IMG/VR virus record: IMGVR_UViG_3300043775_001123
Location: 1 to 58,654 of that record
From: a virus
Length of the DNA stretch: 58,654 nt
Direction: 5' to 3' (one strand)
The notes under the pieces are model-generated. The model was not told where the DNA came from and searched no databases. It worked only from the letters and a program-made list of their open reading frames with translations. How positions within the stretch are numbered: the stretch's first letter is position 1; the number at the start of each line of letters is the position of its first letter. This document shows positions 6,818 to 58,654 of the stretch, in pieces. A program made the translations under genes and the position numbers.

Positions 6818-7005
6818 AGTTCTTCTTGTAATTGTTTTATTAAGTTATTTTCTGCGTGTTCATAGCTTGAATGATGCCAAGTGCAATCTAATCCAGCTGA
6901 TTTTACATAAGGTTTCCATATTTTAATAAGACCAAAGATAGACCATCTTATATCTAATTCTTCTACTATGTATCCTTGTGGTTTTTTTCGTATTCTAAAG
7001 TTCAT
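6796..7005 (-). CDS. Hypothetical protein, 69 aa
   Basis: Starts MNFRIRKKPQGYIVEE and contains a Trp/His-rich section (WSIFGLIKIWKPYV, CTWHHSSYEHAENN). I recognise the pattern as a small protein seen in phages but know no function. Its ATG shares one base with the stop of the methyltransferase gene upstream, indicating translational coupling. Confidence 0.6.
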   Translation of the reverse strand: MNFRIRKKPQGYIVEELDIRWSIFGLIKIWKPYVKSAGLDCTWHHSSYEHAENNLIKQLQEELWKAKKY

Positions 7006-8027
7006 TAATTTTTAATTGTTATAAATGAAAAGATATGTTCGATTATAGGGAGCGTCCAACCATCGCCTAATAAACACGCTGCTTGATTTCTTGTTAAAAT
7101 ACTTGTATATCCATCTTCAAAACCTTGTAATCTTTCAAGTTCTGTTTGTGTAAAATATCTAATATCCCCATCTTGAAAAACAAAGTATTCATTGTTACGT
7201 AAAAGGCAATTAGATTTATCTTTCATTCCTCTTCCTCTTCTTGTTGTAGATGTAGGATAACTTAAATCAACAGCTTCATTATTTGCTATATCTACAAAGC
7301 CAATAGATGTTGCTTCTTTAACTCGTAAATATGTTTGTTCATCTTTAAATAACAAATTAGCCATACCTATTTCAAAATACCTACGTGCCATTTTACTCGG
7401 TGTTGTCAATGGTCGTGAATTTGATTCTAATAAACACATTGCTTTTTGTTTTTCACTATATCCATTTTCAAGAATATCTTTTAAATAAATTTTACGGTCT
7501 TTAGGCTCTGGAATATCAACAACCGTATCAAACATAGTTTCTTTAGTTCGTATGTTAGTCCAGTAGTATCTATCTCTCATTTGCGCTACTACTTTTGAAC
7601 TATTAAAACGCACAGGATAAACGCCTAATTCACGACTCATAATACCTACATCTAATTTACTTGCACTTCCTACATTTTCTTGCAAGAATAAAACATTTGG
7701 ATTAAGTGATTTAATATGGTTTAATATGTCTATAAATGTAAAAAATAAAGATGATTTACTTCCGTTTATTCCTGCTCTCTTTCCTGCTGCTGATAAATCT
7801 TGGCAAGGTGATCCTGATAAAACCAAATCAATACTTTTCCAATCAATATTCCACTCTCTCCATTTGGTTACATCTCCAACTTGTATAGTATCAGGAAAGT
7901 GGTGTTGCGTCAATTCAATAGCATAAGGTTTTATTTCACTTGAATAGTATTTATTTACTTTTATACCTACGTTTTCTAAGGCTTGTCGACCTGTATTCAT
8001 TCCGTTAAATAATGATAGTACATTCAT
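7005..8027 (-). CDS. DNA (cytosine-C5) methyltransferase, 340 aa
   Basis: Has the ordered C5-methyltransferase motifs: I (LSLFNGMNTG, AdoMet binding), IV (GSPCQDLS with catalytic Cys75), VI (QENVGS), and the C-terminal LERLQGFEDGYT segment followed by LGDGWTLPIIEHI (motifs IX-X). It transfers a methyl group from AdoMet to C5 of cytosine in a specific DNA site. No restriction endonuclease is nearby, so an orphan, protective (anti-restriction) methyltransferase is likely. Motif order and length are normal for the family. It lies 3 nt from the primase-helicase gene. Confidence 0.93.
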   Translation of the reverse strand: MNVLSLFNGMNTGRQALENVGIKVNKYYSSEIKPYAIELTQHHFPDTIQVGDVTKWREWNIDWKSIDLVLSGSPCQDLSAAGKRAGINGSKSSLFFTFIDILNHIKSLNPNVLFLQENVGSASKLDVGIMSRELGVYPVRFNSSKVVAQMRDRYYWTNIRTKETMFDTVVDIPEPKDRKIYLKDILENGYSEKQKAMCLLESNSRPLTTPSKMARRYFEIGMANLLFKDEQTYLRVKEATSIGFVDIANNEAVDLSYPTSTTRRGRGMKDKSNCLLRNNEYFVFQDGDIRYFTQTELERLQGFEDGYTSILTRNQAACLLGDGWTLPIIEHIFSFITIKN

Positions 8028-11987: not shown

Positions 11988-12296
11988 CTAAGAAACCTTC
12001 GCAAATCCATAGTAATCTGCTGTTTGTCTGTATAGATTAAATATTTCCTCTTCTGCCTCATTTTGAGTTGAGTAAACTACCCTATTAATTGGTGTATCTT
12101 TCTTGCTTACATCAATTCTTTTATATGTAATTGTATGTTTAAGTGCTTGTTGCTTGTCATCTAGGTTATACTTTACAACATTAAAACCACCAATACATTT
12201 CTCTACAGCAAAGGCAATGTTTGCATTTTTAATTACCTCGTGTACATTTACCATATCCATCTCGCTTGGGTAGTAATCTTTTCTTTTTTTATTCAT
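11988..12296 (-). CDS. Hypothetical protein, 102 aa
   Basis: Unrecognised, mixed alpha/beta, starting MNKKRKDYYPSEMD. Its start overlaps the end of the methyltransferase-like gene by 4 nt. The 51-nt gap after it (11937-11987) shows no clear terminator. Confidence 0.6.
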   Translation of the reverse strand: MNKKRKDYYPSEMDMVNVHEVIKNANIAFAVEKCIGGFNVVKYNLDDKQQALKHTITYKRIDVSKKDTPINRVVYSTQNEAEEEIFNLYRQTADYYGFAKVS

Positions 12297-12958
12297 AATT
12301 TAACGCTTTTTATTATTTCTTCACACAATTGTTGAGGTATTTTAGATCTATCATAACTACACTTTCTACCTTGTGTGCCTGTTTTTGACCCCCTTCTTGA
12401 ACTTTCGTGATGACAATGTTTATCAATTATATTACCTTCTTTGTCATACTTATAATTATGGCACTCTTCTCTTGGAGTCCAATTGTTTGAATTAGTCCAT
12501 ATATCTGTTGGTTTGGCTCTATCGTCACCATATTTGCAATACCATACAGTGTGTCTATTAAAATCCCTCATCCAATCCATATGTCTTAAAACTCCTCTTG
12601 GATTTTCTATAAAGAAAATCATATTAGGATTAATAACCAACCATTCTTTTATTAAGTTAATCCAATGTTTGTTAACACTATCGCACTTAATAGCATAATC
12701 GCTTTTAGGTGATCTATCAATGTTTCTGTGTTTTGATACAGCCGCTATACTATAAGTTGTGCAGTCAGGAGATGCCCAAACAACATCAGGAGTAAATGGT
12801 ATGTCTTTTAAATTTAAGCAACCTATGTCTGCGACTAAGTCTATATTTTCATAAGGAGTCCAATCTACAGAAAACACTTCAATATTATTTTTTTCAGCCT
12901 CAATACCTATGCTTCTTGAACCAGCAAAAAGCTCTAATAGTTTTACTTTATTACTCAT
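12293..12958 (-). CDS. C5-cytosine methyltransferase-like protein with SPDC motif
   Basis: Begins MSNKVKLLELFAGSRS; LELFAGSRSIG is an AdoMet-binding motif I. Motif IV reads WASPDCTTYS with Cys66 in the catalytic position but Asp in place of the second Pro of the usual PPC/SPPC. Motif VI is IENPRG. The C-terminal part has a Cys/His/Arg-rich block (CHHESSRRG, GRKCSY). At 221 residues it is short for a C5 methyltransferase. It may methylate or otherwise modify cytosine. The ATG at 12958 is chosen because it overlaps the upstream stop by 8 nt. Confidence 0.8.
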   Translation of the reverse strand: MSNKVKLLELFAGSRSIGIEAEKNNIEVFSVDWTPYENIDLVADIGCLNLKDIPFTPDVVWASPDCTTYSIAAVSKHRNIDRSPKSDYAIKCDSVNKHWINLIKEWLVINPNMIFFIENPRGVLRHMDWMRDFNRHTVWYCKYGDDRAKPTDIWTNSNNWTPREECHNYKYDKEGNIIDKHCHHESSRRGSKTGTQGRKCSYDRSKIPQQLCEEIIKSVKL

Positions 12959-13664
12959 AATTTGCTTCTTGTAATTCAATTTTTACATTTAGATTATCTA
13001 ATAACTTAACCTGTACATAGTTCTTAATGAAATTCTTTTGCCATCTTGAACCATATACCTCTCTATATATTCTGCACGTAGCTATAAAGTGATTTTTAGA
13101 TTGATTTAAGGCACTTTCTGCTTTCTTTAGTCCTTTGCCTTTAACACCACTAATTGAGTCCGTAGAATCACCTTGAATCATTTGCTTCCAGAAGTTATAG
13201 TTAGCCTCACTTTCACTTATTTCTGTAACCTCTCCAAATCTATTGTAGTAGGTGTCAAATATTGTTATAGGAAATTGACGAAGGTCTTTATCCATACTTG
13301 CGATTAATACTTCTGTAAATGGATATTCTTCTTTACATTTATTCCACATAGATATTATTACATCATCTGTTTCATATCCACCAAGACCATAACCACTCCA
13401 ATTATTTGTGATGTATTCTTTTATCTCCTTGTAGAAGTTTGGTAATGGTTTTCCCTTACGACCAATCTTGTATGATGATACTATTTTCTTCCTGAAGTTA
13501 TTGTTGTATGGTTTTTCTATAAGTACCATATAGTGTGATGCTCCAGATGTAGATACAATATTTGATATTGCAGTATCTACCTTGTCGTAAGCTTGCTCTA
13601 CTTCTTCGCAGTTTGAACCTATGTAGCACATCGAATCTGCGTCTATAATTATAATCTTCTCCAT
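12951..13664 (-). CDS. FEN-family 5'-3' exonuclease / RNase H-like
   Basis: A 237-residue protein with the acidic residues of the FEN/T4 RNase H family: IIIDADS (D8, D10), GYETDDVI (98-103), ASMDKDLRQ (122-130) and GDSTDSISGVKGKG (165-178), the last being the helix-two-turn-helix DNA-binding motif. It removes RNA primers or resects 5' ends, providing 3' tails for the ERF annealase encoded just upstream. A terminator hairpin lies between this gene and the ERF gene. Confidence 0.88.
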   Translation of the reverse strand: MEKIIIIDADSMCYIGSNCEEVEQAYDKVDTAISNIVSTSGASHYMVLIEKPYNNNFRKKIVSSYKIGRKGKPLPNFYKEIKEYITNNWSGYGLGGYETDDVIISMWNKCKEEYPFTEVLIASMDKDLRQFPITIFDTYYNRFGEVTEISESEANYNFWKQMIQGDSTDSISGVKGKGLKKAESALNQSKNHFIATCRIYREVYGSRWQKNFIKNYVQVKLLDNLNVKIELQEANYE

Positions 13665-16273: not shown

Positions 16274-16648
16274 TTAAATGTACTTATGATATAAATTTGC
16301 TATTTTTTGATTAATGCCATAATCAAGTAAAATATAATTCTTACCTTCCATTCCCCAATTTTCAGTGTTATGTAAATCACAGTTACTAAAATCAAACTCA
16401 GGAACTTTTGATTTAATACGTCTTACAAATATATTAGGAATTGTTAATAATTCTGTGTCATATCTTTTTTGACATACTATACCTAGATACATCCATTTTA
16501 ATTCTGCCAATGATGTAATATCTTTATATTTATTCCAAATATATTTTTCATTGAGTCCTTGTAGATAACCTCTTTTGTTTATAGGAATTTTAATGACTAT
16601 GTTTTTTAAAACAATTACTAATCTTGTTGAGTATTTTAATGAAATCAT
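16274..16648 (-). CDS. Small protein with kinase-like catalytic and DFG-like motifs, 124 aa
   Basis: Contains IPINKRGYLQGLNEKYIW, then CDLHNTENWG and, a few residues on, YILLDYG. The DLHN....N plus LLDYG order resembles the catalytic loop (HxDLxxxN) and metal-binding DFG of protein and aminoglycoside kinases. N-lobe elements are largely missing at this length, although VIKIP could be the beta3 Lys strand. I recognise the overall pattern as a widespread phage protein without an assigned function. A reduced kinase fold is inference. Confidence 0.5.
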   Translation of the reverse strand: MISLKYSTRLVIVLKNIVIKIPINKRGYLQGLNEKYIWNKYKDITSLAELKWMYLGIVCQKRYDTELLTIPNIFVRRIKSKVPEFDFSNCDLHNTENWGMEGKNYILLDYGINQKIANLYHKYI

Positions 16649-17537: not shown

Positions 17538-17978
17538 TTATTTATTTTCGTTATACCATTTAATAAATTCTACACAATCGTTATATGCTTTGTCTATTTT
17601 TGGTATGCTGTCTGTTATATTGTAGTACATCTCCATACTATCTAATTCTAAACATATATTAAGTATTTTTTCTACTACTTCCATTAACCAATTCCAATCT
17701 ATGTGATAGTGAGTGTCTTGTATTGTTCTAATATTGTTCTCTGAATACTCAACATTTAAAACGCCATTCATTTCGTAAGTTTCATAACCTAAAAACTCAG
17801 CTATTAGCTTATTATTTTCTTCAATAGCAGATAGAATACCTATACTTGCTTTTGCTCTATCTATCGTGTTGTAGTCTTGGCTCTCTGTTACTTCTCCATT
17901 ATCTTCTGTAACTCTTACAAAGAAATGATTTCCTTCTTGTATTATTTCTTTATTGTCTTGTTTGAATACTAATTTCAT
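17538..17978 (-). CDS. Hypothetical acidic protein, 146 aa
   Basis: The N-terminal half is a small beta domain (MKLVFKQDNKEIIQEG, FFVRVTEDNGEVTES). The centre has the HYHIDWNWLMEVVEKI motif and the end is helical. I recognise HIDWNWLMEVVEKI as a pattern in phage proteins but know no function. Net acidic; 2 nt from both neighbours. Confidence 0.6.
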   Translation of the reverse strand: MKLVFKQDNKEIIQEGNHFFVRVTEDNGEVTESQDYNTIDRAKASIGILSAIEENNKLIAEFLGYETYEMNGVLNVEYSENNIRTIQDTHYHIDWNWLMEVVEKILNICLELDSMEMYYNITDSIPKIDKAYNDCVEFIKWYNENK

Positions 17979-19709: not shown

Positions 19710-19865
19710 TTAATTGTTTAAAGTTTTTATAAATATTTCTGTATTCTCTTCAAATGTTGACAAGTTCTGATAATGCTCTTCAAAGCACATCAATTCATAG
19801 TCCGAATAGTCTGAATCGTTTAACATATTGTTTACCCAATCCTCAAAGTAATAAATCTCTTCCAT
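19710..19865 (-). CDS. Acidic microprotein, 51 aa
   Basis: Starts MEEIYYFEDWVNNML, rich in Asp/Glu/Tyr (DSDYSDYELMCFEEHY). Overall very acidic and aromatic, like other short proteins in this part of the cluster. A copy of the 13-mer repeat (19868-19880) abuts its start codon. Confidence 0.5.
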   Translation of the reverse strand: MEEIYYFEDWVNNMLNDSDYSDYELMCFEEHYQNLSTFEENTEIFIKTLNN

Positions 19866-19879
19866 AATGTTGAGTGCGA

Positions 19880-20671
19880 TTAATTTATTTCTTTCTGTGT
19901 TAGTTTTTCAAATAAATCTTTTAATTCATCAACATTGTTTAATTCCATATAATAATCTATGTCATCCCAAGTTGATTCGTCTTCTGGATCTAGTCCGTAA
20001 ACGTCACAGATATATTCATACATATTCCATTCATCTAAATAATCTACACTTGTATTATTTGTGGTTATATGGTCATCAAACAATCCATTAATAGAAGTGT
20101 TATACACTTTCTCATTCCCATAATACTTGAAGTCATTGTATTGTTTGTAAGAATCATTTGAATACCAATTCCCATCTGTCCACTTACCTAATTCTTCATT
20201 AATGATTGTATATTTGTCGTCTGAATCTAAAAACAATAACTTACTATAACCTATGTATTCCGATATAAAATACTTTGTCATATCACAAGATAAGAAGTTG
20301 TGTTTGAATCTCTTTAACATATCATTAAACTCGTATGTATCTGAAAACTTTTGGTTTCCTAAACCTTTAATGACTCCATTGTGAACAAAACCTAACTTAT
20401 CATTAACTAAGAATGGGTGTAAATTATGTTCTCCTTTGTATCCGCTTGTAGCTATACGGAAGTGCAATACAATGTTACCTACCTCTTTATCATCTCTTAA
20501 TTCATTATACTTACTTATATACTCATCGTAATCATAAGTCTTGAATACATTTAAACCTAACTTGTTATTCCATAGTATTCCAGCTCCCATATCATTGTTA
20601 TCCCAAGAGTTTTTGATATGAGATTTAGGCAATCTACCTGCTTTTTTAGTATTTAATATTGCTATACACAT
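19880..20671 (-). CDS. Class II glutamine amidotransferase-like protein, 263 aa
   Basis: Starts MCIAILN, so Met removal exposes Cys2, the nucleophile of Ntn-type (class II) glutamine amidotransferases. The other family landmarks follow in order: NNDMGAGI (25-32), HFRIATSG (70-77, including the glutamine-binding Arg), HPF (85-87) and FVHNGVI (95-101, oxyanion Asn-Gly). It should hydrolyse glutamine to release ammonia for a partner enzyme. The C-terminal ~100 residues are acidic and Tyr/Asp-rich. It lies 30 nt downstream of the amidoligase gene, which makes that enzyme the natural partner. Confidence 0.85.
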   Translation of the reverse strand: MCIAILNTKKAGRLPKSHIKNSWDNNDMGAGILWNNKLGLNVFKTYDYDEYISKYNELRDDKEVGNIVLHFRIATSGYKGEHNLHPFLVNDKLGFVHNGVIKGLGNQKFSDTYEFNDMLKRFKHNFLSCDMTKYFISEYIGYSKLLFLDSDDKYTIINEELGKWTDGNWYSNDSYKQYNDFKYYGNEKVYNTSINGLFDDHITTNNTSVDYLDEWNMYEYICDVYGLDPEDESTWDDIDYYMELNNVDELKDLFEKLTQKEIN

Positions 20672-20701
20672 AATGTTTAATTTTTAAATTATTTATATTA
20701 A

Positions 20702-21895
20702 TTATTTTTTAATTTCTATTCCTTCAAACTTATTTGTAAACTTTACAAATCTTTCTTTAAGTTCTGCTAACTTTTCATTTGAATATGTTTGCTTTAATAG
20801 TTTTGTAAACTTAGTATCTACATTGTAGTATGCTCGTATTACATCATCAGTAGGGTTTTGAAGCATCATCATAAGAAGTTTACTTCTCCACTTTAATGTC
20901 TTCACATTAGGTACTGCACTGATTATTCTAAACTCGACACGATTACTATGTATCTTGATGGCTTGATATTTCTCGTTATCATTCTTCAAGTCTTCATTAC
21001 TCTTACCTTTTGCATAGTTTCTATCTACTCTACCATAATATAAGGCATAGAACAATGGAGTATATCCTTTTATTTTATCGAATAGTTGTTCTCCAGTTAA
21101 TCCATCTTCTGATAGGTGTATGTGACCACCGCAAGACGTGGAATATTTAGCGTTTATATGTTCAACTAAAGTATTATTACTTTCGATATGCTCGAAGATT
21201 TTATCTATATTAAACTCAAATGTAGGGCTTATCAATTCATATCCAGACTCATCATCCAAACTACCATCTTTTTCTTTTCTCCATAGATCATCTGTTGAAT
21301 CCTCGAAATCATCTATATCAATAGAGTTTCTAACACATCTATCTTCCTTCTCTATCTCATAACCTATCTTGTACTTACTCTTTCCGTCAAAGTCTAATGA
21401 TTGATAGCCTCCATTGTGATACCCTCTTACGTATGATTCTTCTGGATAAGAATAGTAACAACCTTCTTCTTCGTGATAGTATACATTATCTCTATAATCA
21501 TATTCATCTGTATCCTTAACATACACTATATCATTTCTAACTAATGCATCATCATCATAATAATCTCCTTCAAAATAAACATAACTGCTTTTATTTATAT
21601 ACACATTGCTATAATAACATTCATCTCTGCCTTCAAAAACTCTTGATGTGTCATCTGTATGAACATACTCGTCTATTCCTTCACAATAAAACGAATCACC
21701 AATGTCTATAACATCGCCATCGTAAGTCATAACATACGCATCGTTAGAGTATAATAGAGAGTCACTTCTAAAGTAATTATCTAACTCTATATCATCAATA
21801 GATACAATACCATTCTTTATGCTTTCTATTGCATTCTTAACATCTAATTTTGCAGTCAATACTTCGTAAAGTATTTTTAATTCTGATAGTTTCAT
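20702..21895 (-). CDS. Putative amidoligase with an N-terminal Tyr/Asp-repeat region, 397 aa
   Basis: The C-terminal half matches the glutamine-synthetase-fold amidoligase family: GYEIE (178-182), DGS (210-212), GYELISP (218-224), CGGHIHLS (255-262) and VEFRI (320-324), the Glu/His/Arg residues for metal, ATP and substrate. These enzymes form an amide bond from a carboxylate and an amine with ATP. Residues ~45-165 are a repetitive Tyr/Asp/Glu-rich region (DECYYSNVYI, GDYYDDDALV, DTDEYDYRDNVYYHEEE), probably small beta repeats. Amidoligases of this family are known to pair with class II amidotransferases. Substrate unknown. Confidence 0.82.
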   Translation of the reverse strand: MKLSELKILYEVLTAKLDVKNAIESIKNGIVSIDDIELDNYFRSDSLLYSNDAYVMTYDGDVIDIGDSFYCEGIDEYVHTDDTSRVFEGRDECYYSNVYINKSSYVYFEGDYYDDDALVRNDIVYVKDTDEYDYRDNVYYHEEEGCYYSYPEESYVRGYHNGGYQSLDFDGKSKYKIGYEIEKEDRCVRNSIDIDDFEDSTDDLWRKEKDGSLDDESGYELISPTFEFNIDKIFEHIESNNTLVEHINAKYSTSCGGHIHLSEDGLTGEQLFDKIKGYTPLFYALYYGRVDRNYAKGKSNEDLKNDNEKYQAIKIHSNRVEFRIISAVPNVKTLKWRSKLLMMMLQNPTDDVIRAYYNVDTKFTKLLKQTYSNEKLAELKERFVKFTNKFEGIEIKK

Positions 21896-54371: not shown

Positions 54372-57300
54372 ATGATTCAAGATCCAGAATACGTAAAAAA
54401 AGTACATAAAGCATTAACTGATAAAGTAGATGGTTTTAATAAAAGTTTAGAGGAATTTTCTGCTTCATTAAATGATGATAAATACGTAAGCAATGTATAT
54501 AAGGCTTTGAGTGATAAAATTGATGGATTCAGTAAAACTCCTGAACAATTCAAGTCATTAGTATCTTCACCTAAACCTCAAAAAAAAAATTCAAATTCTA
54601 CTGGAACGACTCCTCAAAAGGTGTCAGCTACAAAACCGCAACAGAAAACTACTACTTCGGTTGGAGAGAAACCAGTAAAAACTACGCCTTCGGGTTCTTC
54701 GTTTGGAGGAAGTAATAATATGTATGGTGGTTTAAATGTATTACCACCTGCACCACAGCCTTCTTCTAAGAAACCAATCCCTGTTATGGGAGAGGACATT
54801 CAATTAACTACTAAAAAAGATGGTGTTAAAACAGATATGTCTGGAAATGTTATTTTAGATACAACAAAAAAAACACTTGGTATTCGTGATGAAGATAAAT
54901 TTAAGGAATATAAGCAAGAATTAGAAAAAGTAGACGATAGGTTAGATGTGGCTATAAAAGAAAAAGTAAGCCCTAGAATATCTTATGAAAACTTAAAGAG
55001 CGAGTTAGATGAGTACGAGTTCTCTGATGTTATAAAAGAAGGTTTAAGAAATACTTATAATTCGTTAATAGGAAATCCATTATCTATAATATCTTCTAAA
55101 TTAGGTTCAGAAAAAGATTTTTATATAAAAAAAGGAAATCCTTTAGAAGAACAAAAAAAGAGAGCTGAAAAAGAATTTGCCGAACAAGGCGTGTCTGTGT
55201 CTCCTCAAAAAATACAAGAGAGAGCGGAAGAACTATATATACAAGATGATGTATTAAAGCAAAAACTATCAATTACTGACGAGTTTTTCAGTTCTATAGA
55301 CAAAGGACATCTTACACAAAAACAATTAGAAGTAGTAAAAAAAGCTGAGGTATTTAATAAAAATCAAGAAATAAAGTCTAAGTATCTACTATATAGAGAA
55401 AATGACAGCAAGATAAACGCTTTAAATAATTTCATATTAGAAATAAATAAAAAAGGAGCTGCTACAGAAGAAGATAAAATAGAATACAAAAGACTTTTAA
55501 GTTTAGCTACTGATGCTGAAGAAACAAATAAACAATTATCAACTCAATTTGCATCTGATTTAGAAAAACTAAAAACAGACGAAGAGAAATTAGAATTACT
55601 TAAATACAATTACAATGATTTAGAGGCTTTTAATACTTTTTTAGCATCAAATATCACAGGACTTTTAGGTGGTGGTTTAAAGCTTTTAGGTGAAACAGAA
55701 GATTTTTTACTTGAAAAAGTTGGATTAGAAGGTGAATCTATTAGAGCGAACGCATACAAAAGTATTGGTGGAGAAATGATTTCTGCTTCAGAAGAAGCTA
55801 AAAAGCCTTTTAGAGCTATGTCTATTGAAGATATAAATAACTTAGGCGATCTTGGTTCTTGGTTTACTCAAACTTCTTCATCTACATTAACTAGTGTTGC
55901 CGCTATGTATTTTGGTGGTGGATTTGGTCTTACTGCTTTATCTATGGGGGCTGGAGGTCAAAGAATAGCCGAACTCGAAAAAGAAGAAGCTTTAGGTTTG
56001 ATACCAAAACAAAGTAATGGAGAAAAGGTATTGGCAGGGTGGTTTTATGCTGGAGCTAGTTATTTTCCTGAGAAGTTTGGTACGTTTAGATATTTACAGA
56101 ATTTAAGAAAAACATTTTCAACATTAAATTCTGAATCAAGAAGATTATTTAAAGACTCATTTTTAAAGTCTTCTGCAAAAATAGTAACGTTAACAGGTGG
56201 TCAATCTTTTATTGAAGGAGGCGAAGAGGGTGTTACATCTTTAATTGAAGACGTTACAGATATTTATTTAAGCGGAAAAGAATTGAATAGCAATGATATA
56301 GCTAGAAAATTCAAGAATGCAACAGCTGCTGGTATAGCTAGTGGAGGCACTATGTCTTTAGGCGGTAATTTATCGTTAATGTATTATAGCAACTTAAATC
56401 AATTAGCAGTATCCAAAGATATAAAAGAAAGCAGAAGATTGTTAATTGAAATGGAATCCATAACAGAAGAGTTGAATACAAATACATCATTACTTGATTC
56501 TGATAAGGTTATATTAAATAGAAAATTAAACGACTTAACTGAAAAGTTATTTGAAAATGTAACTAAAACAGAAAACAATGTCGGAAATATATCTTTAAAT
56601 GAGATTTCTAAAGTTATAGATATAAATAACGAACAAGCTAAAATTAAAGAAGAGTATGATAATTTAAGAAGTTCAAATATATCTAAATCAATAAAGGATT
56701 CTAAAGTAAAAGAATTAGATGCTAAATTTGTTTCACTAGAAGCTATAAGAAACGACATTCTTAATGGTAAATATAATGTATTATCATTTATCACAGAAGA
56801 AGAATCAACTAAACTTAAACTACAAGCTGCTGAAGAATTAAAGGCAGAAGCTATAGCAAGTGGCATTGAAGAAGGCAAAGTAAATATTAAGGAAGAAGAA
56901 ATAACTAAAAGAGCAATAGATAACTATGAAAAACAATCTAAAGAAACTACAGTCGAAAAACCCACTAAAGAAGGACCTACAGGGCAAGAAAACGTACAAG
57001 ATGTTACCTCAACACAAGGACAACAAGATAAAGTCGTACAAGAAAAAATAGACAACGTAGATAATAGACCTATTTCAGAAAGACAAGCAGAGGCAGAATC
57101 TAAAATAAAAAGAAAAGATTTATTTATTGGTGTTGGAGAATTCTCTACAGAACTTGGAGGTAGCGATAAGGCTGCTGTTCCTGTATCACATAACGAGAAT
57201 AATGGCATTGAGGTTGTTGAGTATGCACATCCAGACACTGGTAGTATAGATGTTATTGTTACTGGAAAGTCTGAAAACGATTTTGTTGGATTTTATCGTG

Positions 57301-58654
57301 TTTACGAAAATGGTAAGCCTACTAATAAATGGAGTTCTAAATTTGAAAATAAATCAAGAAATAAAGAAGACTTTAAGACAATGATTTCTGGAGTTCAAGA
57401 ATTATTACCAGAAGGACATATGTATACTGAAAAAACAAGTATATCAACAGATGGTTTAAGAGTTTGGAATCAACAATTAAGCAAAGGTTACGAATTACAA
57501 TACGATAAAGACGGAAATATACTAACCAATACAGTTTTTATAAACGGAGATGCTATTGAAAATGAATTAGGAGTAGATGTTAATCGTGGTAATTTTGATA
57601 GTATAAGGGTTACAGAGGAAGAATTTGAGAATGTAAAAAAAGCACTTATACCGTATTTAGAAAAACTAGGATTAAACGAAAATAACATTAGATTAAAAAC
57701 AAGTAAAGCGCCTAAAATACCTGGTTATAATCAAAAATCATTGGTAGAAATAGACCTGCCTATTTTAAAAAAGTCACAAAACGAAACAAAAAACAAGGTA
57801 GAGGAACTAAGACAGCAAGAGATAGCTGAATTTAATAAAGAGGTTGAAAACCCTCAAGACTTCATTACAGATGGTAAAATAGATGCTAAAAAAGTATCCG
57901 AATCTGACAACGCAAAAGCTAAGGAGATTTACGCTAAGTATGATAAGTTACTAAAACCGTTATTAACTAATATTAAAACACAAGAAGATGCCATTCAAAA
58001 GCAAAGCACAAGTGAAGGCGTGTTACGCCAAGAACAATCCGAAATGGGATTGCAAGAAGTGGTCGAAGGAGACCAAGAACCTGAAGTCACTACCGAAAAA
58101 ATTGAAAAAGTAGCTAGAATATCTGGTGTTAAACCTAAAAACATAAAGGGTTTATACGATGTAAACAGAAAAATGTTTGGTCAAAACAGAGTTAAGGCAT
58201 TAGCTTCTGCTGTAATTATGGATAGAATGATAGGTTCTATGGCTAAAAGAGCTAATGTAGATAAGTCTGAAATATATAAAAAAATAAGGTTTGAAAAATC
58301 AAGTGAAACAGACTTACCTAAAGGTATTAAATTTCAAGTAGATGCTTGGCACGGAAGCCCTCATTTTTTTGATAAATTTACAACTGAAAAGATGGGTACT
58401 GGAGAAGGTGTTCAAGCATTTGGTTGGGGATTATATTTTACAGAAATTAAAAGTATTGCTGAACATTACGCTAAATATTTGAGTTCTCCTTTATTTGAAG
58501 ATTTTGTTAGTAAATTACAGAAAAGTAATTTATCAAAATTGTCTATATTGAATATATCTGAATTTTCAGAATATTATTCGTACGATTATGACAAAGTATT
58601 AAATGCTTTAGAAAGAGAACAAGACAATGAAGCTATAAAATACATTAAAGAAAA
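54372..58654 (+). CDS. Giant polyvalent virion protein with ADP-ribosyltransferase motif, 3' truncated
   Basis: Opens at MIQDPEYVKKVHKALTDKVD and stays open to the last base, so at least 1427 residues. The N-terminus has two ~38-residue repeats (DPEYVKKVHKALTDKVDGF and DDKYVSNVYKALSDKIDGF). A Pro/Thr/Ser linker, coiled coils and a Gly/Ala-rich hydrophobic section (TLTSVAAMYFGGGFGLTALS) follow. At ~1324 comes DAWHGSPHFFDKF, then GTGEGVQAFGWGLYFTE, the signature of ADP-ribosyltransferases in polyvalent proteins. Such proteins travel in the virion and enter the cell with the DNA to disarm defences. The 478-residue frame at 1-1437 may be its end. Confidence 0.85.
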   Translation, partial: MIQDPEYVKKVHKALTDKVDGFNKSLEEFSASLNDDKYVSNVYKALSDKIDGFSKTPEQFKSLVSSPKPQKKNSNSTGTTPQKVSATKPQQKTTTSVGEKPVKTTPSGSSFGGSNNMYGGLNVLPPAPQPSSKKPIPVMGEDIQLTTKKDGVKTDMSGNVILDTTKKTLGIRDEDKFKEYKQELEKVDDRLDVAIKEKVSPRISYENLKSELDEYEFSDVIKEGLRNTYNSLIGNPLSIISSKLGSEKDFYIKKGNPLEEQKKRAEKEFAEQGVSVSPQKIQERAEELYIQDDVLKQKLSITDEFFSSIDKGHLTQKQLEVVKKAEVFNKNQEIKSKYLLYRENDSKINALNNFILEINKKGAATEEDKIEYKRLLSLATDAEETNKQLSTQFASDLEKLKTDEEKLELLKYNYNDLEAFNTFLASNITGLLGGGLKLLGETEDFLLEKVGLEGESIRANAYKSIGGEMISASEEAKKPFRAMSIEDINNLGDLGSWFTQTSSSTLTSVAAMYFGGGFGLTALSMGAGGQRIAELEKEEALGLIPKQSNGEKVLAGWFYAGASYFPEKFGTFRYLQNLRKTFSTLNSESRRLFKDSFLKSSAKIVTLTGGQSFIEGGEEGVTSLIEDVTDIYLSGKELNSNDIARKFKNATAAGIASGGTMSLGGNLSLMYYSNLNQLAVSKDIKESRRLLIEMESITEELNTNTSLLDSDKVILNRKLNDLTEKLFENVTKTENNVGNISLNEISKVIDINNEQAKIKEEYDNLRSSNISKSIKDSKVKELDAKFVSLEAIRNDILNGKYNVLSFITEEESTKLKLQAAEELKAEAIASGIEEGKVNIKEEEITKRAIDNYEKQSKETTVEKPTKEGPTGQENVQDVTSTQGQQDKVVQEKIDNVDNRPISERQAEAESKIKRKDLFIGVGEFSTELGGSDKAAVPVSHNENNGIEVVEYAHPDTGSIDVIVTGKSENDFVGFYRVYENGKPTNKWSSKFENKSRNKEDFKTMISGVQELLPEGHMYTEKTSISTDGLRVWNQQLSKGYELQYDKDGNILTNTVFINGDAIENELGVDVNRGNFDSIRVTEEEFENVKKALIPYLEKLGLNENNIRLKTSKAPKIPGYNQKSLVEIDLPILKKSQNETKNKVEELRQQEIAEFNKEVENPQDFITDGKIDAKKVSESDNAKAKEIYAKYDKLLKPLLTNIKTQEDAIQKQSTSEGVLRQEQSEMGLQEVVEGDQEPEVTTEKIEKVARISGVKPKNIKGLYDVNRKMFGQNRVKALASAVIMDRMIGSMAKRANVDKSEIYKKIRFEKSSETDLPKGIKFQVDAWHGSPHFFDKFTTEKMGTGEGVQAFGWGLYFTEIKSIAEHYAKYLSSPLFEDFVSKLQKSNLSKLSILNISEFSEYYSYDYDKVLNALEREQDNEAIKYIKE

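What the first reader, a model, noticed from the sequence alone, without database searches (positions are those of the whole stretch)
19880..21895. Amidoligase plus class II glutamine amidotransferase pair in a phage
The 397-residue protein has all amidoligase motifs (GYEIE, GYELISP, CGGHIHLS, VEFRI) and the adjacent 263-residue protein has Cys2 and the class II amidotransferase signature. Amidoligase families are known to be coupled with amidotransferases for peptide or cell-wall modification. In a phage early operon they may amidate a host protein, a peptidoglycan carboxylate or a small metabolite, possibly as a counter-defence.
Basis: partly seen in the sequence, partly recalled or inferred. 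Interest (0 to 1): 0.75.

Follow-up and report, generated by a model that had tools for sequence, protein, structure and literature searches.

The report
Phage amidoligase and glutaminase gene pair
A virus of Flavobacterium-type bacteria carries two neighbouring genes that together look like an enzyme for turning an acid group into an amide using glutamine; the pair is real and widespread in phages, but it has been described before and its target is still unknown.

Summary
Window 20702-21895(-) encodes a 397-aa glutamine-synthetase-fold amidoligase; 19880-20671(-) encodes a 263-aa class II glutamine amidotransferase (GATase), 30 bp apart on one strand. In 95 complete pairs from related viral contigs every catalytic position is invariant: amidoligase GxExE, E220, GxH, ExR; GATase Cys2, Arg72, Asn98-Gly99, Asp111. 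Amidoligase next to GATase is conserved in 105 of 124 unique loci; nearly all exceptions are contig ends or a GATase 2-4 kb downstream. Flanking genes turn over while the pair stays. The closest isolates are Flavobacterium elemo podophages, which lack the pair; it sits in the variable, promoter-proximal part of the leftward operon. The pairing is not new: phage amidoligase/GATase pairs are published, also in larger cassettes with ATP-grasp, COOH-NH2 ligase and gamma-glutamyl cyclotransferase, proposed but untested as peptidoglycan modifiers. This window has the minimal two-gene form. Most likely the GATase feeds ammonia to the amidoligase, which amidates an ATP-activated carboxylate, perhaps on a peptidoglycan or peptide substrate. 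The target is inferred; counter-defence has no support here. Verdict: new member of a known kind, low to moderate interest.

The parts
20702..21895 (-). GS-fold amidoligase, 397 aa; catalytic domain about residues 170-382, with an N-terminal extension (1-170)
   Evidence: ORF; PHROG 7469 amidoligase 4.3e-6; AlphaFold model, pLDDT 81; nearest folds YbdK and glutamine synthetases; catalytic columns 95/95
21350..21364 (-). motif GYEIE (residues 178-182), equivalent of the GS metal/glutamate ExE strand (equivalence from my own knowledge of GS)
21224..21244 (-). motif GYELISP (residues 218-224), invariant E220
21110..21133 (-). motif CGGHIHLS (residues 255-262), invariant G256 and H258; H260 varies (H/N/T/S/C/G) in other members
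20924..20938 (-). motif VEFRI (residues 320-324), invariant E321 and R323
21386..21895 (-). N-terminal extension (residues 1-170); possibly a degenerate tandem zinc-ribbon array (CxxC arrays in some homologues)
   Evidence: 7-9 CxxC/CxxxC motifs in 9 homologues; weak profile match, E=0.0078 for the window; hhalign probability 24%
19880..20671 (-). class II (Ntn) glutamine amidotransferase, 263 aa; Cys2 becomes the N-terminal nucleophile after Met removal (inferred)
   Evidence: profile hits GlmS, PurF, YafJ type; C2, R72, T75, N98, G99, D111 in 95/95
19710..19865 (-). small acidic ORF (51 aa) 14 bp downstream of the GATase; homologues near the pair in only 4 related loci, so not a general part of the module

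Best explanation
The two genes encode one enzyme system. The class II GATase hydrolyses glutamine with its N-terminal cysteine and hands the ammonia to the adjacent GS-fold amidoligase. The amidoligase activates a carboxylate with ATP as an acyl phosphate and converts it to an amide. Enzyme families and evolutionary pairing are shown by sequence, fold and synteny; physical coupling and ammonia transfer are inferred. The acceptor is inferred only: most likely a carboxylate on a cytoplasmic peptide-type substrate such as a peptidoglycan stem-peptide precursor, which would alter the envelope of the infected cell, as proposed for the larger phage cassettes. My rough odds: the two proteins acting in one pathway 0.85; ammonia-dependent amidation 0.6; peptidoglycan or a precursor as target 0.35.
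For: Catalytic residues of both proteins are invariant across 95 complete pairs. 105 of 124 unique loci have the pair adjacent on one strand, median gap 13.5 bp; of the 19 others only L092 and L169 are not explained by contig ends, an ORF-start overlap (L027) or a GATase 2-4 kb downstream. Distance matrices of the two proteins correlate, Mantel r=0.84 against a permutation maximum of 0.10. Loci found with the amidoligase alone still have the GATase next door. The amidoligase model matches the GS superfamily: YbdK Z 8.3, human GS Z 8.2. The GATase profile matches the GlmS glutaminase domain. AL-GAT-AL triads exist, consistent with one glutaminase serving two ligases. The wider cassette in isolates such as Escherichia phage Bas89 adds COOH-NH2 ligase, RimK-like ATP-grasp and gamma-glutamyl cyclotransferase; the GATase is fused to a gamma-glutamyl cyclotransferase domain in 16 loci, which points to peptide/gamma-glutamyl chemistry.
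Against: No activity has been measured for any of these phage pairs in the papers I could read. The GATase model failed (pLDDT 45), so the interface and an ammonia channel were not examined. The amidoligase model is weak around residues 152-162, 213-215 and 288-310, and Z about 8 is only moderate. The window lacks the cyclotransferase, the COOH-NH2 ligase and, by one query without a positive control, the ATP-grasp, so arguments from larger cassettes may not carry over. The Mantel correlation also reflects shared vertical descent.
Confidence: 0.5

Rival explanations
1. Tag-on/tag-off logic: the amidoligase joins glutamate (or another acid) to an amine as a gamma-glutamyl amide and the Ntn 'GATase' hydrolyses that amide later, as the EgtA ligase and EgtC amidohydrolase do in ergothioneine synthesis (pathway from my own knowledge). 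The GATase would then not be an ammonia donor.
For: A GATase relative (L072) matches EgtC TIGR03442 at 2.3e-6, slightly better than GlmS at 1.7e-5. 16 loci fuse the GATase to gamma-glutamyl cyclotransferase, an enzyme that removes gamma-glutamyl groups. YbdK, the best structural match, is a GCS2-type carboxylate-amine ligase.
Against: For the window protein itself NCBIfam lists GlmS and not EgtC. The full family profile ranks GlmS and PurF above YafJ-type structures. Sequence cannot decide donor against hydrolase.
Confidence: 0.25
2. Protein or peptide modification: the amidoligase amidates side chains of a host or phage protein, recruited by its N-terminal extension.
For: Variable N-terminal extensions; in nine homologues they hold 7-9 CxxC/CxxxC motifs, like zinc-binding recruitment modules, and a ligand-poor version is possible in the window. 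A small acidic ORF lies 14 bp downstream.
Against: The zinc-ribbon link for the window is weak (E=0.0078; hhalign probability 24%). The small ORF is not a conserved neighbour, and no conserved third gene was found in this lineage.
Confidence: 0.2
3. Nucleotide or DNA-base modification: the pair amidates a carboxylated base or nucleotide as part of anti-restriction.
For: The window also has a C5-cytosine methylase and a second DNA methyltransferase. The pair sits in the leftward operon with replication genes.
Against: No DNA-hypermodification enzyme was seen among the proteins annotated here, and no shared modification gene was found beside the pair in relatives.
Confidence: 0.08
4. Nitrogen-metabolism auxiliary genes: the pair helps assimilate nitrogen, as suggested for a planctomycete phage (PMC10945688).
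For: That paper reports phage amidoligase, GATase, glutathione synthase and cyclotransferase genes and growth effects of the phage.
Against: The growth effects were with whole phage, not the genes. A two-gene amidating system consumes glutamine and ATP rather than assimilating ammonia.
Confidence: 0.05

Closest known systems
Methylophilales phages MEP401/MEP402 amidoligase + GATase (PMC10580990)
   Same: Two adjacent genes in the same order; the GATase is 39-40% identical to the window's over 194 residues; the upstream gene joins the amidoligase family in the iterated profile (9e-76; it was by then part of the profile). The paper names both families.
   Different: Amidoligase longer (548 aa) with an unrelated-looking N-terminal part; marine OM43 host rather than Flavobacterium.
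phiEco32 / RIO-1 / LUZ24-type 'peptidoglycan modification cassette' (PMC5498523, citing Iyer and Hardies; UFV-P2 PMC3890496)
   Same: Amidoligase next to class II GATase in a phage replication-side operon; related by profile (Bas89 amidoligase 2.3e-8 and GATase 4.1e-9 in a 13-sequence comparison).
   Different: The cassette also has COOH-NH2 ligase, ATP-grasp and gamma-glutamyl cyclotransferase; the window has neither COOH-NH2 ligase nor cyclotransferase.
Mycobacterium phage Marvin gp105-gp106
   Same: Two-gene amidoligase-GATase module (gp105 amidoligase 1.6e-35, gp106 GATase 1.4e-26 in a 13-sequence comparison).
   Different: Actinobacterial host; gp105 carries CxxC zinc-ribbon-like motifs and is annotated as a GATase.
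EgtA/EgtC, MurT/GatD and AsnB-type amidation systems (own knowledge)
   Same: A carboxylate-activating ligase working with a glutamine-cleaving or amide-cleaving partner; EgtA is GS-superfamily.
   Different: MurT is a Mur ligase with a class I GATase and AsnB is an asparagine synthetase, so their ligase folds differ from this GS-type enzyme; the EgtC model is not passed by the window protein.

Membership tests
GS-fold amidoligase (Pfam Amidoligase_2 type) | GxExE, E, GxH and ExR catalytic signature | tested here: met
   95/95 complete homologues, window included
GS-fold amidoligase (Pfam Amidoligase_2 type) | score above the Pfam gathering cut-off | tested here: inconclusive
   19.3 bits against a cut-off of 22; relatives such as L158 pass at 24.7
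GS-fold amidoligase (Pfam Amidoligase_2 type) | glutamine-synthetase fold | tested here: inconclusive
   Listed VIA-align matches are all GS superfamily, residues about 170-382, but Z is about 8 and the core has weak stretches
GS-fold amidoligase (Pfam Amidoligase_2 type) | ATP-dependent amide formation | not testable with these tools
   needs biochemistry
Class II glutamine amidotransferase (Ntn) | N-terminal Cys, Arg, Asn-Gly oxyanion pair and Asp of the glutamine pocket | tested here: met
   C2, R72, N98, G99, D111 in 95/95
Class II glutamine amidotransferase (Ntn) | homology to solved class II domains | tested here: met
   GlmS 1.3e-7, PurF 2.6e-6, 3mdn 2.1e-5 with the 47-sequence profile
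Class II glutamine amidotransferase (Ntn) | glutaminase activity | not testable with these tools
   needs biochemistry
Phage amidoligase/GATase module (Iyer et al. 2009 as cited in PMC10580990) | amidoligase and GATase adjacent in a phage | tested here: met
Phage 'peptidoglycan modification cassette' of RIO-1/phiEco32 type | gamma-glutamyl cyclotransferase present | tested here: not met
   no match in the window at E<=1, while 11 control genomes ring
Phage 'peptidoglycan modification cassette' of RIO-1/phiEco32 type | COOH-NH2 ligase present | tested here: not met
   no match at E<=1; the virus record may be incomplete
Phage 'peptidoglycan modification cassette' of RIO-1/phiEco32 type | RimK-like ATP-grasp present | tested here: inconclusive
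   one protein query found nothing, no positive control; none in the iterated profile search either
Phage 'peptidoglycan modification cassette' of RIO-1/phiEco32 type | acts on peptidoglycan | not testable with these tools
   given as a hypothesis in PMC5498523
EgtC-type amidohydrolase | passes the TIGR03442 (EgtC) cut-off | tested here: not met
   the window protein has no EgtC hit at E<=0.1; relative L072 has 27.1 bits against a cut-off of 218.65

The most novel reading that the evidence does not exclude
The minimal two-gene form in elemo-like Flavobacterium phages is a stand-alone amidating enzyme with its own substrate, chosen by the N-terminal extension, and different from the gamma-glutamyl chemistry proposed for the larger cassettes.
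Probability: 0.2. Interest if true: 0.6.

Novelty: new member of a known kind. Interest (0 to 1): 0.33.

Why it matters
Phages in many groups keep this pair with complete catalytic conservation while the genes around it turn over, so it does something useful in infection. No substrate is known to me. The two-gene form, here and in mycobacteriophage Marvin, is the simplest version in which to find it: success would name a virus-made modification of the bacterial cell and help explain the larger cassettes. On its own, one more carrier phage is an ordinary finding.

Tried and rejected
Nucleotide search in phages gave nothing, and so did tblastn with the window amidoligase. A genome-contig scan matched patterns but no relative, so no bacterial or prophage copy was recovered. 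PDB sequence search with the close GATase alignment A3 found nothing, and with the close amidoligase alignment A1 only chance-level hits such as SET-domain proteins; the diverse amidoligase alignment found none either. A peptide substrate encoded by the 51-aa ORF was considered and dropped because that ORF is not a conserved neighbour. A defence/anti-defence label was considered: PADLOC lists neither protein. Promoter-like sites near the pair are fewer than in shuffles (43 against 54.6) and were not used. The Iyer 2009 and Marvin papers are not held, so they are cited only through papers I read.

Full report
What is there. Two ORFs lie on the minus strand, 30 bp apart: 20702-21895 (397 aa) and 19880-20671 (263 aa). 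Single-sequence family hits are weak, so identity rests on alignments. In 95 complete pairs drawn from related loci, these positions are invariant: G178, E180, E182, E220, G256, H258, E321, R323 in the amidoligase; C2, R72, T75, N98, G99, D111 in the GATase. The GATase family profile matches GlmS, PurF and YafJ-type class II domains. The amidoligase model (pLDDT 81) aligns over residues 170-382 to YbdK (Z 8.3) and then to glutamine synthetases. Z near 8 is moderate, but the listed matches are all of one superfamily. That the motifs correspond to the metal- and substrate-binding residues of glutamine synthetase, and of GlmS for the GATase, is from my own knowledge of these families.

The pair is a unit. 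I built profiles and searched the ORFs of all fetched loci. Of 124 unique loci (deduplicated by identical protein only, so not independent), 105 have the two genes adjacent on one strand, amidoligase upstream in nearly all, with a median gap of 13.5 bp. Of the 19 others, L027 is an overlap caused by an early GATase start in my ORF call; five have the GATase 2-4 kb downstream (L090, L095, L099, L104, L105); eleven are cut at or near a contig edge; L092 (an amidoligase fragment) and L169 (four GATases, no amidoligase) remain. Loci fetched with the amidoligase alone still show the GATase beside it. Seven loci have amidoligase-GATase-amidoligase triads, with motifs largely intact in both ligases; my pattern did not find GxHx[HN] in the first L065 copy or hExR in the first L130 copy, and I did not inspect these further. 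Distances of the two proteins correlate (r=0.84; permutation maximum 0.10), which also reflects shared descent.

Genome and host. The window is a linear virus record of 58,654 bp, 30.7% GC, no terminal repeat found. Its terminase is 80% identical to those of Flavobacterium elemo podophages, and most of the genome is collinear with NC_055852. The host is therefore probably a Flavobacterium relative (inferred). The record starts and ends inside ORFs related to separate parts of one large elemo structural gene, so it is likely near-complete with that gene cut. No elemo homologue was found for window genes between 17,978 and 24,706. The pair lies in this variable, promoter-proximal stretch, and tblastn with the amidoligase finds no phage isolate at E<=1e-5, elemo phages included. 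Neighbours within the pair's own lineage also turn over; none is shared by most loci.

Wider cassettes. In isolates Bas89 and Lyrsu01 the related genes sit with a COOH-NH2 or carboxylate-amine ligase, ATP-grasp and gamma-glutamyl cyclotransferase. In 16 unique loci the GATase is fused to a cyclotransferase domain, and 12 have an ATP-grasp gene downstream. The window has no cyclotransferase and no COOH-NH2 ligase. PMC5498523 calls the RIO-1-like set a peptidoglycan modification cassette hypothesised to block superinfection, and PMC10580990 reports the two genes in OM43 phages. Neither tests the function in the passages I read.

Mechanism. Shown: enzyme families, catalytic conservation, pairing, co-variation. 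Inferred: ammonia transfer, acyl-phosphate amidation, and a peptidoglycan or peptide acceptor. The main rival is a tag-on/tag-off scheme with the GATase as an EgtC-like amidohydrolase. It gains some weight from an EgtC hit to one relative and from the cyclotransferase fusions, but the window protein itself hits GlmS, not EgtC. The N-terminal extension may be a ligand-poor relative of the CxxC arrays seen in nine homologues; the profile link is weak and I treat it as a suggestion.

Verdict. Real, conserved and worth testing, but the pair and its proposed role are in the literature. Counter-defence is not supported by anything I found. What is added here: the minimal two-gene form in an elemo-like Flavobacterium phage lineage, the near-universal linkage, the triads, and tractable models (Marvin in M. 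smegmatis, Bas89 in E. coli).

Noticed in passing
L169:5536-10927 (contig IMGVR_UViG_3300016665_000612): Four tandem class II GATase genes with no amidoligase detected, next to an adenylosuccinate synthetase gene (Pfam 5e-79) and a DHFR gene.
   Followed up: partly
L185:3836-5197 (Mycobacterium phage Marvin gp105): Annotated as a glutamine amidotransferase domain protein, but it matches the amidoligase profile; gp106 is the GATase. Many related mycobacteriophage records carry the same name.
   Followed up: partly
window 16274-16648: 80% identical to an elemo protein encoded near 6.8-7.2 kb in NC_055852, so the gene has moved relative to elemo.
   Followed up: no
window 7005-8027 and 12293-12979: A C5-cytosine methylase and a second DNA methyltransferase with no elemo homologue in the same comparison.
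   Followed up: no
window 17538-17978: Weak PADLOC match to PD-Lambda-3_B (E=4.9e-4), which is not evidence of a defence system.
   Followed up: no
window 54372-58652 and 1-1437: Large ORFs open at both ends of the record match separate parts of one 11-kb elemo structural gene, suggesting a cut record.
   Followed up: partly
L126:7992-8939 and L026:6001-7218, GATase C-terminus: Several GATases carry cysteine-rich C-terminal tails; the window GATase does not.
   Followed up: no
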